A stretch of 25,785 bases of DNA from Scytonema sp. UIC 10036 (lineage in GTDB: Bacteria; Cyanobacteriota; Cyanobacteriia; Cyanobacteriales; Nostocaceae), in the NCBI RefSeq assembly GCF_009725235.1, contig NZ_WJFC01000188.1, forward strand, positions 1 through 25,785. Reading direction: 5' to 3'. Shown here in pieces: positions 3,533 through 20,250 of this stretch. Positions within the stretch are counted from its first letter, which is position 1; each line of letters starts with the position of its first letter. Both the position numbers and the translations under genes were made by a program. A model generated the notes under the pieces. It was not told the origin of the DNA. It saw nothing but the letters and a program-made list of their open reading frames with translations, and searched no databases.

Positions 3533-3627
3533 TTGGGCATGGGGGATAGGGCATTGGGCATAGCGAATTGGGCATTGTGAAAGCTATTGAATACTCAATG
3601 TCCGATGCCCATTGCCCATTGCCCATC
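3533..3627. repeat. Inverted heptamer array, GGGCATT/CCCATTG family
   Basis: The left part has degenerate GGGCATT-type units (3533-3577); the right part has ATGCCCATTG-type units (3596-3627). The two arms are complementary and would fold into a hairpin in the rpsI-rpmE transcript. The right arm abuts the rpsI stop codon. A related array occurs at 9144-9270. Confidence 0.85.
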
Positions 3628-4044
3628 TTACCGCTTCGAGTACTGAGGTGCTTTACGAGCTTTGTGCAAACCGTACTTTTTGCGCTCTTTCGCTCGTGGA
3701 TCGCGAGTTAGATACCCTTCGCTTTTCAACGGCGAACGGTTATCGGGATCGAGTTGGCACAGCGCCCGAGCCACTCCCAAACGAACAGCATCAGACTGTC
3801 CGGTTAAGCCACCGCCTTCAGCTTTCACTAAGATGTCATACTCGTTTTCCAAACCTAGAGTTTCTAGGGGTGCTTTGGCAACGGCAAGATAATTAGCGTT
3901 GAACTGGAAGTAAAGGTCTCCTGGTTTGCCATTAACAATCAATTGTCCGGTACCGGGTACCAAACGAACTCGTGCGATCGCGGATTTACGACGACCCGTA
4001 CCCCAATACATGGCACGACCGCTGTTAGTGTCTGTTGCTTGCAT
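3628..4044 (-). CDS. rpsI: 30S ribosomal protein S9
   Basis: The 138-aa protein has the S9 features: GTGRRKSAIARVRL near the N-terminus, the NGKPGDLYF region, GGGLTGQSDAVRLGVARAL in the middle, and a basic C-terminal tail ending KAPQYSKR, which in S9 reaches the P-site tRNA. The start is ATG at 4044, with AGGAG about 10 nt upstream inside the end of rplM. It follows rplM after 5 nt, the usual rplM-rpsI pair, so the two are almost certainly co-transcribed and perhaps translationally coupled. Confidence 0.97.
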   Translation of the reverse strand: MQATDTNSGRAMYWGTGRRKSAIARVRLVPGTGQLIVNGKPGDLYFQFNANYLAVAKAPLETLGLENEYDILVKAEGGGLTGQSDAVRLGVARALCQLDPDNRSPLKSEGYLTRDPRAKERKKYGLHKARKAPQYSKR

Positions 4045-4049
4045 GAATC

Positions 4050-4502
4050 TTATGCTCCTGGAATTGTCTGAATCTTTAACTCTTTGGGTTGTTGTGCTGC
4101 GTGGGGATGAGTGGGTCCAGCATAAACTTTCAGCTTGGTAAACAGCTTACGACCCAAACTATTCTTAGGTAACATACCTTTAACAGCATGCTCTACAATC
4201 CTCTCTGGCAAACGTTGTTGCAGCTTATCAAAGCTTTCTGTCTTCATACCACCCGGACGCCCGGAGTGACGGCGGTAAACCTTTTGTGTACGTTTTTTAC
4301 CCGTAACAGTTACTTTATCAGCATTGATAACGATCACAAAGTCACCTGTGTCCATGTGAGGAGTGTATTCGGGTTTATTTTTTCCTCTGAGAATCATGGC
4401 AACTTCGGTAGCTAAGCGACCAAGGCGTTGGTCAGCTGCATCTACTACATACCAGTTATGCTGGAGTGTTTTTTCGGGAGGAAGGAACGTTTTGTTAGTC
4501 AT
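4050..4502 (-). CDS. rplM: 50S ribosomal protein L13
   Basis: The 150-aa protein shows L13 motifs: KTFLPPEKTLQHNWYVVDAADQRLGRLA at the start (in part), AMILRGKNKPEYTPHMDTGDFV, YRRHSGRPGG, and LPKNSLGRKLF with KVYAGPTHPHAAQQP near the end. L13 is an early-assembly protein binding 23S rRNA. The start is ATG at 4502; no Shine-Dalgarno sequence is visible because the sequence upstream is the A/C-rich side of a heptamer array. It forms a pair with rpsI downstream. Confidence 0.97.
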   Translation of the reverse strand: MTNKTFLPPEKTLQHNWYVVDAADQRLGRLATEVAMILRGKNKPEYTPHMDTGDFVIVINADKVTVTGKKRTQKVYRRHSGRPGGMKTESFDKLQQRLPERIVEHAVKGMLPKNSLGRKLFTKLKVYAGPTHPHAAQQPKELKIQTIPGA

Positions 4503-4512
4503 TTGTTGTCTA

Positions 4513-4634
4513 TGGTTAGTTGTTAGTTGTTTAGTTGTTAGTTGTTAGTTGTTAGTTGTTAGTTGTTAGTTGTTAGTTGTTTGACTAACCACTATCTACT
4601 AACTACTATCTAATAACCACTAACCACTAACTAA
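4513..4634. repeat. Inverted heptamer array, GTTAGTT/CTAACCA family
   Basis: Units of GTTAGTT run from 4513 to about 4582, then CTAACCACTA-type units run to 4634. The arms are complementary and fill the entire rplM-truA spacer. The right arm extends into truA and supplies its stop codon (TAG at 4627-4629) and last Ser codon. Confidence 0.93.
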
Positions 4635-18177: not shown

Positions 18178-19038
18178 TGATTCACGTCCGCCACGTCCGC
18201 GCTTGGAAGACTTACGACGGCGACGTACAATCAACTTACTGCTGGCTTTCTTGGGTTTGCGTGTCTTGAGACCCAAAGCAGGTTTACCCCAAGGGGTGAC
18301 AGGACCCGATCTACCAATAGGTGCTCTACCTTCACCACCACCATGGGGGTGATCCACTGGGTTCATCACACTACCTCTGACTTGAGGACGGCGACCCTTC
18401 CAGCGAACTCTACCAGCTTTACCTGCACTGAGGTTTCTGGCGTCGAGGTTACCAACTTGTCCGATTGTGGCATAGCATTCGCGGCGCACCATCCGGACTT
18501 CAGTGGAAGGTAACTTGAGAGTGACGTAATTACCTTCTTTTGCCACAACTTGAGCTGTAGCACCTGCGGCGCGAACAATTTGACCGCCTTTACCTGGTTT
18601 TAACTCTACGTTGTGGACGCTAGTACCCAAGGGAATGTTAGACAGAGGTAAAGCATTACCATTTTCGATAGGCGCAGTCGGTCCAGCAATAATTGTTCTA
18701 CCTACACCTACTCCATTGGGCTGTAAAATGTAACGCTTCTCGCCATCTTCGTATTGCAATAGAGCAATCCGTGCATTGCGGTTGGGGTCGTATTCAATAG
18801 CAATCACTTTAGCGGGAATATCACGCTTATCTCGCTTAAAGTCAATGATGCGGTAAAGACGCTTGTGTCCGCCACCTCGGTGACGGGTGGTGATACGTCC
18901 TTGATTGTTCCGACCTTTCGCACGATGGAGCGATCTGGTTAAAGACTTTTCTGGTTCGCTTTTTGTAATTTCCGAAAAGTCAGAAATTGTGACCTGGCGA
19001 GTGCTGGGGGTATAAGGGCGAAAAGAACGAGTACCCAT
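18175..19038 (-). CDS. rplB: 50S ribosomal protein L2
   Basis: L2 is needed for subunit association and peptidyl transfer. From ATG at 19038 the protein has 287 aa and starts MGTRSFRPYTPSTRQVTISD, the normal N-terminus. The frame stays open upstream to 19146, but those 36 codons are array sequence, so that longer version is rejected. Key motifs are GRNNQGRITTRHRGGGHKRL, IEYDPNRNARIALLQYEDGE, and the C-terminal GSVMNPVDHPHGGGEGRAPI containing the functionally important His. No Shine-Dalgarno is visible. It lies between rplW and rpsS. Confidence 0.98.
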   Translation of the reverse strand: MGTRSFRPYTPSTRQVTISDFSEITKSEPEKSLTRSLHRAKGRNNQGRITTRHRGGGHKRLYRIIDFKRDKRDIPAKVIAIEYDPNRNARIALLQYEDGEKRYILQPNGVGVGRTIIAGPTAPIENGNALPLSNIPLGTSVHNVELKPGKGGQIVRAAGATAQVVAKEGNYVTLKLPSTEVRMVRRECYATIGQVGNLDARNLSAGKAGRVRWKGRRPQVRGSVMNPVDHPHGGGEGRAPIGRSGPVTPWGKPALGLKTRKPKKASSKLIVRRRRKSSKRGRGGRES

Positions 19039-19042
19039 AACA

Positions 19043-19166
19043 ATTTTGGATTTTGGATTGGCGATTTTAGATTTGTCAATTTTTGAATTTTGGATTCTGG
19101 ATTTTTTGATTAATTTAAGTTTCAGTAACTCTAATCTAAAATCCAAAATCTAAAATCTAAAATTCT
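19043..19166. repeat. Inverted heptamer array, GGATTTT/AAAATCC family (copy 3)
   Basis: Left GGATTTT-type units, degenerate (19043-19110), and right AAAATCC/AAAATCT units (19131-19166), again ending AAAATTCT next to the rplW stop codon (TAA). It is the third consecutive spacer with this family. Confidence 0.92.
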
Positions 19167-19492
19167 TAGACTTCTGGGAATAAAACTTGTCTGATCTTCT
19201 CTACATCCCCAGCTGCGACTGTAACAATAGCTCGCTTGTATTGGGATTTGAAACCTATAAATTTACCAACACGTTTTTTCTTGCGTGGTGGTAATGCGGT
19301 ATTGACTCCTACAACTTTGACGTCAAATAAGTTTTCAATAGCCGCCTTGATTTCTGGTTTGGTCGCTTTTGGAGTCACTTCAAAAGTGTATTTATTCTGC
19401 TCCATTAAGATAGTCGCCTTTTCAGTTAGAATTGGGCGACGTATAAGATCCGGGAGCTTACGGACGTCAAACTCTTGAGGTATCTTTCCCAC
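19166..19492 (-). CDS. rplW: 50S ribosomal protein L23
   Basis: The 108-aa protein has the L23 pattern: DLIRRPILTEKATILMEQNK, YTFEVTPKATKPEIKAAIEN, LFDVKVVGVNTALPPRKKKR and KSQYKRAIVTVAAGDVEKI. L23 sits at the tunnel exit and is the main docking site of trigger factor and SRP. The start is GTG at 19492, with a perfect AGGAGG 6 nt upstream. It overlaps the 3' end of rplD by 26 nt, which implies translational coupling. Confidence 0.98.
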   Translation of the reverse strand: MGKIPQEFDVRKLPDLIRRPILTEKATILMEQNKYTFEVTPKATKPEIKAAIENLFDVKVVGVNTALPPRKKKRVGKFIGFKSQYKRAIVTVAAGDVEKIRQVLFPEV

Positions 19493-20117
19493 CGTAGACC
19501 TCCTGAATCTTTTCTAAAGCTTGCGCTGTTACAACAATTTTGTCAGCATGGAGCAAGTCGTAAACGTTGAGTTGATCTGCTGGAATGAGTTTGAGATTTT
19601 CTAAGTTACGGGCTGACAAGTATACGTTTTCCGTGCGTTCCGATAAGATTAACAAAGTTTTGCTTTCTGGAGCCGCACCCCAACGAGCGATCGCACTGAC
19701 CAACTCTTTTGTTTTGGGACGTTGGATTTGATCGCTAAATTCTTCTACCACAATCAAATCATCGATTCGACTGGCGAATGCTGTTCTCAGGGCCAACTGC
19801 CGTTCTTTACGGTTCATTTTGATTTCAAAATCTCTGGGTTTTGGTCCAAAGATGACACCACCACCGCGCCATAATGGTGAACGGATAGATCCAGCACGAG
19901 CTCGACCAGTTCCTTTTTGCCGCCAAGGTTTGCGACCGCCTCCTCGAACTTCCGAACGAGTTTTTGTACTAGCTGTTCCTTGGCGAGCATTAGTCATTTG
20001 TCTCACCAAGGCTCTATGCACGATGTGAGACGCCGTTTTTTCCTTGGCTACTTTCAAATCGAACGATCCTTGTCCGACTTGCTCTCCTTGCCAATTTTTG
20101 ACTACATACTCCAACAT
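19467..20117 (-). CDS. rplD: 50S ribosomal protein L4
   Basis: The 216-aa protein has the L4 pattern: MLEYVVKNWQGEQVGQGSFD, ASHIVHRALVRQMTNARQGT, the tunnel loop EVRGGGRKPWRQKGTGRARA with GSIRSPLWRGGGVIFGPKP, and the NVYDLLHADKIVVTAQALEK end. L4 reaches into the exit tunnel; in E. coli it also represses the S10 operon, which is unproven here. The start is ATG at 20117 with AAAGGA 5 nt upstream. That Shine-Dalgarno is part of the heptamer array. The 3' end overlaps rplW. Confidence 0.98.
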   Translation of the reverse strand: MLEYVVKNWQGEQVGQGSFDLKVAKEKTASHIVHRALVRQMTNARQGTASTKTRSEVRGGGRKPWRQKGTGRARAGSIRSPLWRGGGVIFGPKPRDFEIKMNRKERQLALRTAFASRIDDLIVVEEFSDQIQRPKTKELVSAIARWGAAPESKTLLILSERTENVYLSARNLENLKLIPADQLNVYDLLHADKIVVTAQALEKIQEVYGGKDTSRV

Positions 20118-20250
20118 TTTTGTCCTTTGTCCTTTGTCTTTTGTCCTTTGTCATTTGTCCTTTGTCATTTGTCCTTTGTCATTTGTCACTTTTTGAAAAT
20201 CGCAACTAATGACCGATGACCAATGACTAATGACCAATAACTAATGACGG
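20118..20250. repeat. Inverted heptamer array, TTTGTCC/AATGACC family
   Basis: The left arm (20118-20188) alternates TTTGTCC and TTTGTCA units; the right arm (20204-20250) has CAATGAC and TAATGAC units. The arms pair partly. The unit next to rplD reads AAAGGAC on the coding strand and gives the Shine-Dalgarno of rplD; an AAAGGA one unit further upstream is repeated. Confidence 0.93.

What the first reader, a model, noticed from the sequence alone, without database searches (positions are those of the whole stretch)
3533..20250. Heptamer hairpin arrays occupy most spacers of the ribosomal protein cluster
Thirteen spacers between co-directional essential genes hold arrays of 7-bp units arranged as G-type arm, short loop, complementary arm. 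One, at 5486-5545, is a perfect 21-bp stem. Families differ between spacers: GTTAGTT, GTCATTT, GGGCATT, GCTAATT, TGAATGA, TGAAGTA and GGATTTT. If the genes are co-transcribed, the mRNA carries a large hairpin between many adjacent genes. STRR heptamers are known in heterocystous cyanobacteria, but this density inside one housekeeping operon, as paired arms, suggests a role in mRNA processing or differential expression, or a proliferating element that targets spacers.
Basis: partly seen in the sequence, partly recalled or inferred. Interest (0 to 1): 0.72.

Follow-up and report, generated by a model that had tools for sequence, protein, structure and literature searches.

The report
Stop-codon hairpins built from seven-base repeats
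In this cyanobacterium most free gaps in the main ribosomal-protein gene cluster are filled by a hairpin of seven-base repeats that starts right after the stop codon; relatives often keep such hairpins but change the repeat's letters, and what they do is still untested.

Summary
Fifteen of the window's 30 gene junctions carry 7-bp arrays; 13 of these have strong paired arms, and in 14 of 15 the best stem starts 0-4 nt after the stop codon. Over 81 loci (window plus 80 relatives) period 7 gives 828 segments in 202,643 bp of spacer, 0 in shuffles, 3 in coding DNA; other lags give 0-16 except the harmonic 14. Twelve junctions hold arrays in 41-81% of genomes, the other 18 in 0-21%. Unit families switch at least 45 times on a tree, yet arms stay complementary. 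In five genomes arrays are commoner in the cluster than in other short co-directional spacers (38/96 versus 67/439), but the atp operon has them too. Elsewhere arrays concentrate just after stop codons.

These are STRR-type repeats, already known to form hairpins (hupS-hupL, trnL intron). Function is unproven: U-tracts are rare, Shine-Dalgarno masking weak, and mismatches show no G-U signature. My best reading is interchangeable post-stop mRNA hairpins grown by slippage; a neutral DNA-level origin is nearly as likely.

The parts
20118..20252 (-). rplC-rplD spacer; hairpin arms 20150-20195 / 20203-20248 (GTCATTR-type), 4 nt after the rplC stop
19039..19165 (-). rplW-rplB spacer; arms 19042-19073 / 19133-19164 (GATTTTR-type), 1 nt after the stop
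18009..18174 (-). rplB-rpsS spacer; arms 18014-18044 / 18143-18173 (GATTTTG-type), 1 nt after the stop, 98-nt loop holding further repeats
17636..17729 (-). rpsS-rplV spacer; arms 17649-17684 / 17693-17728, 1 nt after the stop
16357..16453 (-). rpsC-rplP spacer; arms 16380-16402 / 16431-16453 (GAATTAT-type), directly after the stop
15388..15426 (-). rpsQ-rplN spacer; short single hairpin (7-bp stem here), no tandem array; shown for comparison
14493..14665 (-). rplX-rplE spacer; arms 14553-14588 / 14630-14665 (GAATGAT/GAATTAT-type), directly after the stop
13415..13521 (-). rpsH-rplF spacer; arms 13440-13471 / 13489-13520 (GCTAATT-type), 1 nt after the stop
12336..12503 (-). rplR-rpsE spacer; arms 12382-12435 / 12449-12502 (GTCATTT-type), 1 nt after the stop
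11723..11807 (-). rpsE-rplO spacer; arms 11744-11765 / 11786-11807 (GTTAGTT-type), directly after the stop
11141..11278 (-). rplO-secY spacer; arms 11197-11231 / 11241-11275 (GAAGTAT/GAAGGAT-type), 3 nt after the stop; this junction holds arrays in only 5 of 80 loci
8996..9269 (-). adk-infA spacer; weak stem (score 12) with arms 9168-9205 / 9230-9267 (GGGCATT-type), 2 nt after the stop
5914..5996 (-). rpoA-rplQ spacer; weak stem (score 12) with arms 5939-5954 / 5964-5979, 17 nt after the stop
5455..5562 (-). rplQ-truA spacer; arms 5469-5506 / 5525-5562, directly after the stop; contains the perfect 21-bp stem 5486-5506 / 5525-5545
4503..4626 (-). truA-rplM spacer; arms 4537-4577 / 4584-4624 (GTTAGTT-type), 2 nt after the stop
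3494..3627 (-). rpsI-rpmE spacer; arms 3534-3569 / 3590-3625 (GGGCATT-type), 2 nt after the stop

Best explanation
These are STRR-type heptad repeats that act as building material for a hairpin placed directly behind the stop codon of one cistron and ending before the start region of the next. Step 1 (inferred): 7-nt units multiply by replication slippage in spacers that carry no other conserved signal. Step 2 (shown in sequence): in the ribosomal cluster the two ends of the spacer carry complementary arms, and such arms are found again after the unit sequence has been replaced. Step 3 (inferred): in the polycistronic mRNA each hairpin punctuates the message and shields the 3' end of the upstream cistron from 3'-5' exonucleases after cleavage, as REP/BIME elements are held to do in enterobacteria (recalled), in a phylum that lacks Rho. 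Only the fold matters, so unit families are interchangeable.
For: First and last arms in a spacer are more alike inverted than direct in 286 of 304 spacers with two or more segments; inverted similarity >=0.7 holds in 74% within a spacer, 31% across spacers of one genome and 45% across genomes at one spacer. At least 45 unit-family switches over 12 junctions on a 76-tip tree. Array spacers fold with mean z -3.59 (n 548), weak-array versions of the same junctions -2.62 (n 122), array-free ones -1.75 (n 167), coding windows -0.54 (n 314). Window stems start 0-4 nt after the stop in 14 of 15 spacers; over all loci the median offset of 363 array stems is 2 nt. In five genomes array coverage 10-40 nt after stops is 12-14%, on the start side of co-directional spacers 4-6%, before divergent starts 1-2%, and about 1-2% at 150-300 nt from any end. 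In those genomes the best array is paired in 20/47 cluster spacers and 77/368 others. STRR hairpins at hupS-hupL had a stability or coupling role suggested (PMC2670836, passages). trnL P6b stems of two heptad classes share one fold (PMC4476775, passages).
Against: Stem mismatches in array spacers show A-C (303) above G-U (182) in the sense strand, the opposite of an RNA wobble signature; two junctions (rpsS-rplV, rpsI-rpmE) go the other way, array-free stems are even (30 versus 26), and genome co-directional arrays are 48 versus 66. Genome-wide, arrays near stops are no more often paired than others (50/225 versus 76/370, p 0.68). Restricted to co-directional spacers <=200 nt the pairing excess is not significant (15/38 versus 15/67, p 0.07). 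Some array-free control spacers fold as well (adk-infA -3.15, rpmE-prfA -2.95, rpsQ-rplN -2.55). Array junctions are mostly those with little sequence conservation. Array presence changes at least 175 times on the tree, and counts per locus range from 0 to 15, so no single hairpin is indispensable. No transcript data were available.
Confidence: 0.42

Rival explanations
1. Neutral DNA-level growth. Heptads expand by slippage, and a nascent strand that folds back copies one arm into its mirror image; the palindromes persist only where nothing is constrained, between a stop codon and the next start region.
For: The order of variant units is mirrored between arms beyond unit shuffles (74 of 177 testable hairpins with mid-p <0.05; 177 of 267 testable; related species not independent). 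No RNA wobble bias. In two clades array junctions are 23-61% identical, array-free ones mostly 59-94% with two exceptions. Most arrays elsewhere in the genomes are unpaired (77 of 368 paired).
Against: Arrays concentrate within about 80 nt of stops rather than spreading evenly. They are enriched in the ribosomal cluster over other short co-directional spacers. Array-free versions of the same junctions still fold better than coding DNA.
Confidence: 0.38
2. Translational coupling: the hairpin hides the next Shine-Dalgarno region and a terminating ribosome opens it.
For: Window stems begin where a ribosome at the stop codon would sit, and some 3' arrays reach the Shine-Dalgarno region. rplQ-truA shows a gain (0.48 to 0.62 with arrays, 0.40 to 0.57 without). 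Coupling was suggested for STRR hairpins (PMC2670836).
Against: Over 542 array spacers the predicted unpaired fraction of the Shine-Dalgarno region rises only from 0.57 to 0.61 when a ribosome is placed at the stop; 278 array-free versions rise 0.59 to 0.62; 373 control spacers go 0.53 to 0.52. Arrays also occur in convergent spacers, where there is no downstream start.
Confidence: 0.08
3. A mobile or proliferating repeat element that targets spacers, like REPIN/RAYT or small dispersed repeats.
For: Arrays are dispersed in the sampled relatives and appear and vanish often.
Against: No conserved core; units at one junction change completely between species and differ between junctions of one genome. 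Non-heptad inserts seen in some array spacers are separate sequences. Transposase genes were not searched.
Confidence: 0.06
4. Intrinsic transcription terminators or attenuators between cistrons.
For: Strong stems right after stop codons.
Against: At least 4 T in the 8 nt after the 3' arm in only 33 of 458 stems, below the 16% of windows in the same spacers. None of the ten minus-strand terminator-like sites in 3200-20300 lies on these hairpins, though that scan demands three G-C pairs and a loop of 3-8 nt.
Confidence: 0.03
5. Telomere-fusion-like repair: a break in the spacer is capped on both 3' ends with G/T-rich heptads and rejoined, giving G/T arm, junction, A/C arm.
For: G/T-rich arm first in 255 of 267 cluster hairpins, and in 13 of 13 paired arrays of convergent spacers <=200 nt.
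Against: Only nine unit families underlie the cluster count (8 of 9 G/T-rich). Elsewhere polarity is weaker: 103 versus 23 arrays, both arms of a hairpin possibly counted; with another pairing rule in three genomes convergent pairs split 5 to 4. No enzyme was sought.
Confidence: 0.03

Closest known systems
STRR (short tandemly repeated repetitive) heptanucleotide sequences of heterocystous cyanobacteria
   Same: 7-bp tandem units, intergenic, in filamentous cyanobacteria; hairpin-forming examples between hupS and hupL and upstream of hoxW are described (PMC2670836, passages seen).
   Different: Here the paired-arm form fills 15 junctions of one gene cluster, abuts stop codons, and is followed across 81 loci with unit replacement. 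In the capped listings I saw no title or abstract start that describes this for the ribosomal cluster; the founding STRR paper was not seen.
Heptanucleotide P6b stem of the cyanobacterial tRNA-Leu (UAA) group I intron
   Same: Degenerate heptads pair into a hairpin; two repeat classes of very different sequence give a similar fold, with repeated shifts from one to the other (PMC4476775 and PMC3488679, passages seen).
   Different: That is one stem inside an intron; here many intercistronic stems sit behind stop codons, with about nine families.
E. coli REP/BIME palindromes near stop codons
   Same: Intergenic palindromes; those fewer than 16 nt from a stop are reported to lower translation (PMC12306157, passages seen).
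   Different: REPs share consensus motifs; the heptad hairpins have no shared sequence and are built of tandem units.
TAACTGA direct repeats of Beggiatoaceae and some cyanobacteria
   Same: Intergenic heptamer direct repeats, some in ribosomal-protein operons (PMC4679880, abstract and passages seen).
   Different: A single unit sequence, nearly all direct rather than paired, and in the main genome mostly just upstream of start codons rather than behind stops.

Membership tests
STRR heptanucleotide repeats | tandem units of 7 bp | tested here: met
   828 lag-7 segments in spacers; other lags from 4 to 15 give 0-16 apart from 14
STRR heptanucleotide repeats | intergenic location | tested here: met
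   3 segments in coding DNA of 81 loci; 10 in genes called in three genome samples
STRR heptanucleotide repeats | heterocystous (Nostocales) host | tested here: met
   best SecY relatives, 90-92%, are titled Nostocales cyanobacterium HT-58-2, Tolypothrix, Scytonema, Brasilonema; heterocysts themselves not testable
STRR heptanucleotide repeats | dispersed over the genome | tested here: inconclusive
   no own genome is held; dispersed in relatives and at three other window places
STRR heptanucleotide repeats | the founding consensus units of the 1990 description | not tested
   founding paper not seen; known from a citation and recall
REP/BIME or REPIN elements | conserved palindromic core sequence | tested here: not met
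   45 distinct 5'-arm units in nine families among 267 hairpins
REP/BIME or REPIN elements | associated RAYT transposase | not tested
   not searched
Intrinsic terminators | U-tract after the stem | tested here: not met
   33 of 458 stems versus 16% background
Known Rfam RNA families | match above gathering score | tested here: not met
   0 matches in the window

The most novel reading that the evidence does not exclude
A sequence-free structural code: the ribosomal (and atp) operons of Nostocales carry a system of interchangeable hairpins, one behind most free stop codons, in which heptad slippage plus mirrored arm copying keeps renewing the stem while selection sees only the fold, so that each cistron of one long mRNA gets its own 3' boundary in a phylum without Rho.
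Probability: 0.25. Interest if true: 0.75.

Novelty: new variant of a known kind. Interest (0 to 1): 0.5.

Why it matters
The function of STRR repeats was still called unknown in the paper passage I saw (PMC2670836). This window has the most array-bearing junctions of the loci examined, and the relatives give a frame in which hairpins behind stop codons recur while unit sequences are replaced. That turns an open question into a direct experiment: change the letters and keep the pairing, or keep most letters and break the pairing, at one junction of a well-measured operon. It also bears on how long mRNAs in a phylum without Rho get internal 3' ends.

Tried and rejected
Intrinsic termination: U-tracts are rarer after the stems than in the same spacers at large, and the terminator scan finds nothing at them on the coding strand. 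Shine-Dalgarno masking: small effect. RNA wobble signature: looked for and found reversed overall; repeated unit variants probably inflate the counts. Stop codon as seed of the array: among 251 arrays starting within 3 nt of a stop, the three stop positions match 7 nt downstream in 72%, 29% and 56%, so arrays abut the stop rather than clearly growing from it. Pairing concentrated near stops genome-wide: no. Rfam: no match. Covariation in the small rpsQ-rplN hairpin: modest (5 of 9 pairs with a change on both sides, reached in 8 of 500 shuffles, but the -3 slide scores higher on covariation); 38 of the 71 spacers listed were aligned. The 577-pair own-versus-swapped test (98.8% own) used hairpins already selected for inverted similarity >=0.6, so it overstates the effect; one search is the unselected version. 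Family switches (45) are close to what shuffled labels give at several junctions: families carry little phylogenetic signal, and each hairpin was forced into the nearest of nine families.

Limits: the 80 loci are the best of 569 by SecY, so close relatives only; rows are related by descent; gene starts are taken from alignment to the window; genes in genome samples were called by a simple codon model that leaves some genes uncalled (coding fraction 0.57 in one genome). Draft assemblies may shorten arrays. Of 20 further cyanobacterial loci with lower SecY identity, 14 held the cluster (30-31 genes) and had 0-1 segments except two (20 and 6); six gave only three genes each.
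Full report
What was checked. The window holds 31 genes in one direction from rplC to prfA, all named by profile search, in a cyanobacterium whose closest SecY relatives are titled Nostocales HT-58-2, Tolypothrix, Scytonema and Brasilonema (90-92%). No own genome is held. I fetched 80 orthologous loci with up to 10-kb flanks, the best 80 of 569. The genes found are in the same order in all 81 loci; contig ends leave some loci incomplete.

The arrays are real. A scan for matches at a fixed lag gives 828 segments at lag 7 in 202,643 bp of spacers, 0 in shuffled spacers and 3 in coding DNA; lags 4-6, 8-13 and 15 give 0-16, and 14 is the harmonic. 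In the window 15 of 30 junctions carry such arrays, the most of the 78 loci with at least 20 spacers (median 8, minimum 0).

Anatomy. Read along the mRNA, each unit is: stop codon, G/T-rich arm, loop, A/C-rich arm, start region of the next gene. In the window the best stem begins 0-4 nt after the stop in 14 of 15 junctions and 17 nt after it at rpoA-rplQ. Thirteen stems score 15-28; adk-infA and rpoA-rplQ score 12, like array-free long spacers (10-12). Over the twelve main junctions in all loci, 251 of 559 array spacers have their first array within 3 nt of the stop, while 188 have it 30 nt or more away. The 363 array stems of score >=10 have a median length of 26 bp, loop 16 nt and offset 2 nt from the stop.

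Which junctions. Twelve junctions carry arrays in 41-81% of genomes. Ten have none, among them infA-rpmJ, rpsM-rpsK, rpmE-prfA and rplV-rpsC besides overlapping or very short ones. Eight are low: rpsK-rpoA 16 of 78, rpoA-rplQ 10 of 78, adk-infA 7 of 80, rplO-secY 5 of 80, rpmC-rpsQ 3 of 79, rpsQ-rplN 2 of 79, secY-adk 2 of 80, rpmJ-rpsM 1 of 80. In two test clades the twelve array junctions are 23-61% identical and array-free ones mostly 59-94%, with infA-rpmJ (39%) and rpsK-rpoA (32%) of the Scytonema group as exceptions; in a third clade (Dolichospermum group) array junctions reach 88%. Arrays therefore mostly take spacers without other conserved signals.

Arms belong together. Of 681 spacers with a segment of score >=10, 304 have two or more. 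In 286 of 304 the first and last are more alike inverted than direct. Inverted similarity >=0.7 occurs in 74% within a spacer, 31% between spacers of one genome and 45% between genomes at one spacer. In 74 of 177 testable hairpins the order of variant units is mirrored beyond unit shuffles. Unit families switch at least 45 times over 12 junctions on a 76-tip tree, and array presence changes at least 175 times. A test on hairpins already chosen for complementarity gave own-partner preference in 98.8% of 577 species pairs, which overstates the effect because of that choice.

Fold. Array spacers have mean folding z -3.59 (n 548), weak-array ones -2.62 (n 122), array-free ones at the same junctions -1.75 (n 167), coding windows -0.54 (n 314). 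Control spacers vary: adk-infA -3.15, rpmE-prfA -2.95, rpsQ-rplN -2.55, rpsM-rpsK -1.58, the rest -0.97 to 0.03. Some spacers without strong arrays still place a clean hairpin directly after the stop, such as rpsS-rplV in L005; others do not. rpsQ-rplN keeps a small single hairpin of the same G/T-then-A/C type: 80% of cells in 38 aligned sequences form standard pairs, with modest covariation support.

Polarity. The 5' arm is G/T-rich in 255 of 267 cluster hairpins, but these reduce to nine unit families, 8 of 9 G/T-rich. Elsewhere it is 103 versus 23 paired arrays; with a different pairing rule in three genomes it is 14 to 3 in co-directional, 5 to 4 in convergent and 2 to 0 in divergent spacers.

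Genome context. In five sampled relatives (120 stretches of 20 kb) arrays occur in 39 of 163 convergent, 67 of 439 co-directional and 4 of 68 divergent spacers of 200 nt or less, and in 46 of 127, 152 of 535 and 60 of 248 longer ones. Coverage 10-40 nt after stops is 12-14%, on the start side of co-directional spacers 4-6%, before divergent starts 1-2%, and about 1-2% at 150-300 nt from any end. In the cluster of the same five genomes 38 of 96 short spacers carry arrays (p 3.7e-7), and the best array is paired in 20 of 47 spacers against 77 of 368 elsewhere (p 0.0018); restricted to short co-directional spacers the pairing difference is p 0.07, and near stops genome-wide there is none. Around atpA in three genomes arrays are also present, several beginning 0-10 nt after a stop. 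Among 14 further cyanobacterial clusters of lower SecY identity one has 20 segments in 14 junctions, one has 6, the rest 0-1.

Mechanism. Termination is unlikely: U-tracts follow 33 of 458 stems, below background. Shine-Dalgarno masking is weak (0.57 to 0.61). If base pairing in the sense RNA were under selection, G-U mismatches should be favoured over A-C; A-C is commoner in array stems (303 versus 182), with two junctions the other way. This leaves two close contenders: post-stop mRNA hairpins that punctuate and protect cistrons, favoured by position and by recurrence of the fold after unit replacement, and neutral fold-back palindromes in unconstrained spacers, favoured by the mirrored unit order and the missing wobble signature.

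Known context. STRR hairpins between hupS and hupL and upstream of hoxW are on record, with a role in stability or coupling proposed (PMC2670836, passages). Repeats with visible 7-nt periodicity are tabulated for hyp-operon spacers of Nostoc PCC 7120 (PMC2408588, passages). The trnL P6b stem shows two heptad classes with a similar fold (PMC4476775, PMC3488679, passages). E. coli REPs fewer than 16 nt from a stop are reported to lower translation (PMC12306157, passages). Cyanobacteria lack Rho, and in Synechococcus elongatus most transcription units do not end at canonical terminators, while the noncanonical ends broadly lack strong structure (PMC13289151, abstract and passages); the last point argues against assuming hairpin-protected ends throughout the phylum. 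I did not see the ribosomal-cluster pattern in the capped listings, and the founding STRR papers were not seen.

Noticed in passing
window 14512-14529, - strand (rplX-rplE spacer): A sequence-conserved hairpin CCCTGACCAAGCCCAGGG (58 exact, the rest one-base variants) occurs in 77 of 79 loci, at least 76 of them 14-19 nt before the rplE start. Its position recalls the S8 autoregulatory site of the E. coli spc operon (recalled, not tested).
   Followed up: partly
relatives only, e.g. L015 (rpsC-rplP spacer) and L039 (rplR-rpsE spacer); the second kind was not found in the window: Two kinds of non-heptad inserts recur in array spacers: one with GACGCGATTAATCGCGTC, like csR2 of PMC2408588, and one with CCCCAAGACCGCACTGGCTC. 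They may be small dispersed repeats reported in Nostoc (recalled).
   Followed up: partly
window 3142-3247, - strand (rpmE-prfA spacer): This array-free spacer is 85-94% identical within three clades and carries a hairpin-like GACGACCCTGCAT...GCTGGGTCG in the examples printed; perhaps a separate regulatory signal.
   Followed up: no
window 24126-24260: Heptad hairpin in a convergent spacer between a DUF3172 gene and an AMIN-domain gene, with twelve perfect TAACAAC copies in the 3' arm.
   Followed up: partly
window 21627-21728: In the divergent rplC/ndhN spacer a 9-bp array (GAGGACAAG) lies next to an AATGACA heptad array without an obvious heptad partner.
   Followed up: no
L173 (unnamed cyanobacterium, SecY 73% identical): A more distant cyanobacterium has 20 heptad segments in 14 junctions of the same cluster, so the phenomenon recurs outside the close relatives.
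   Followed up: partly
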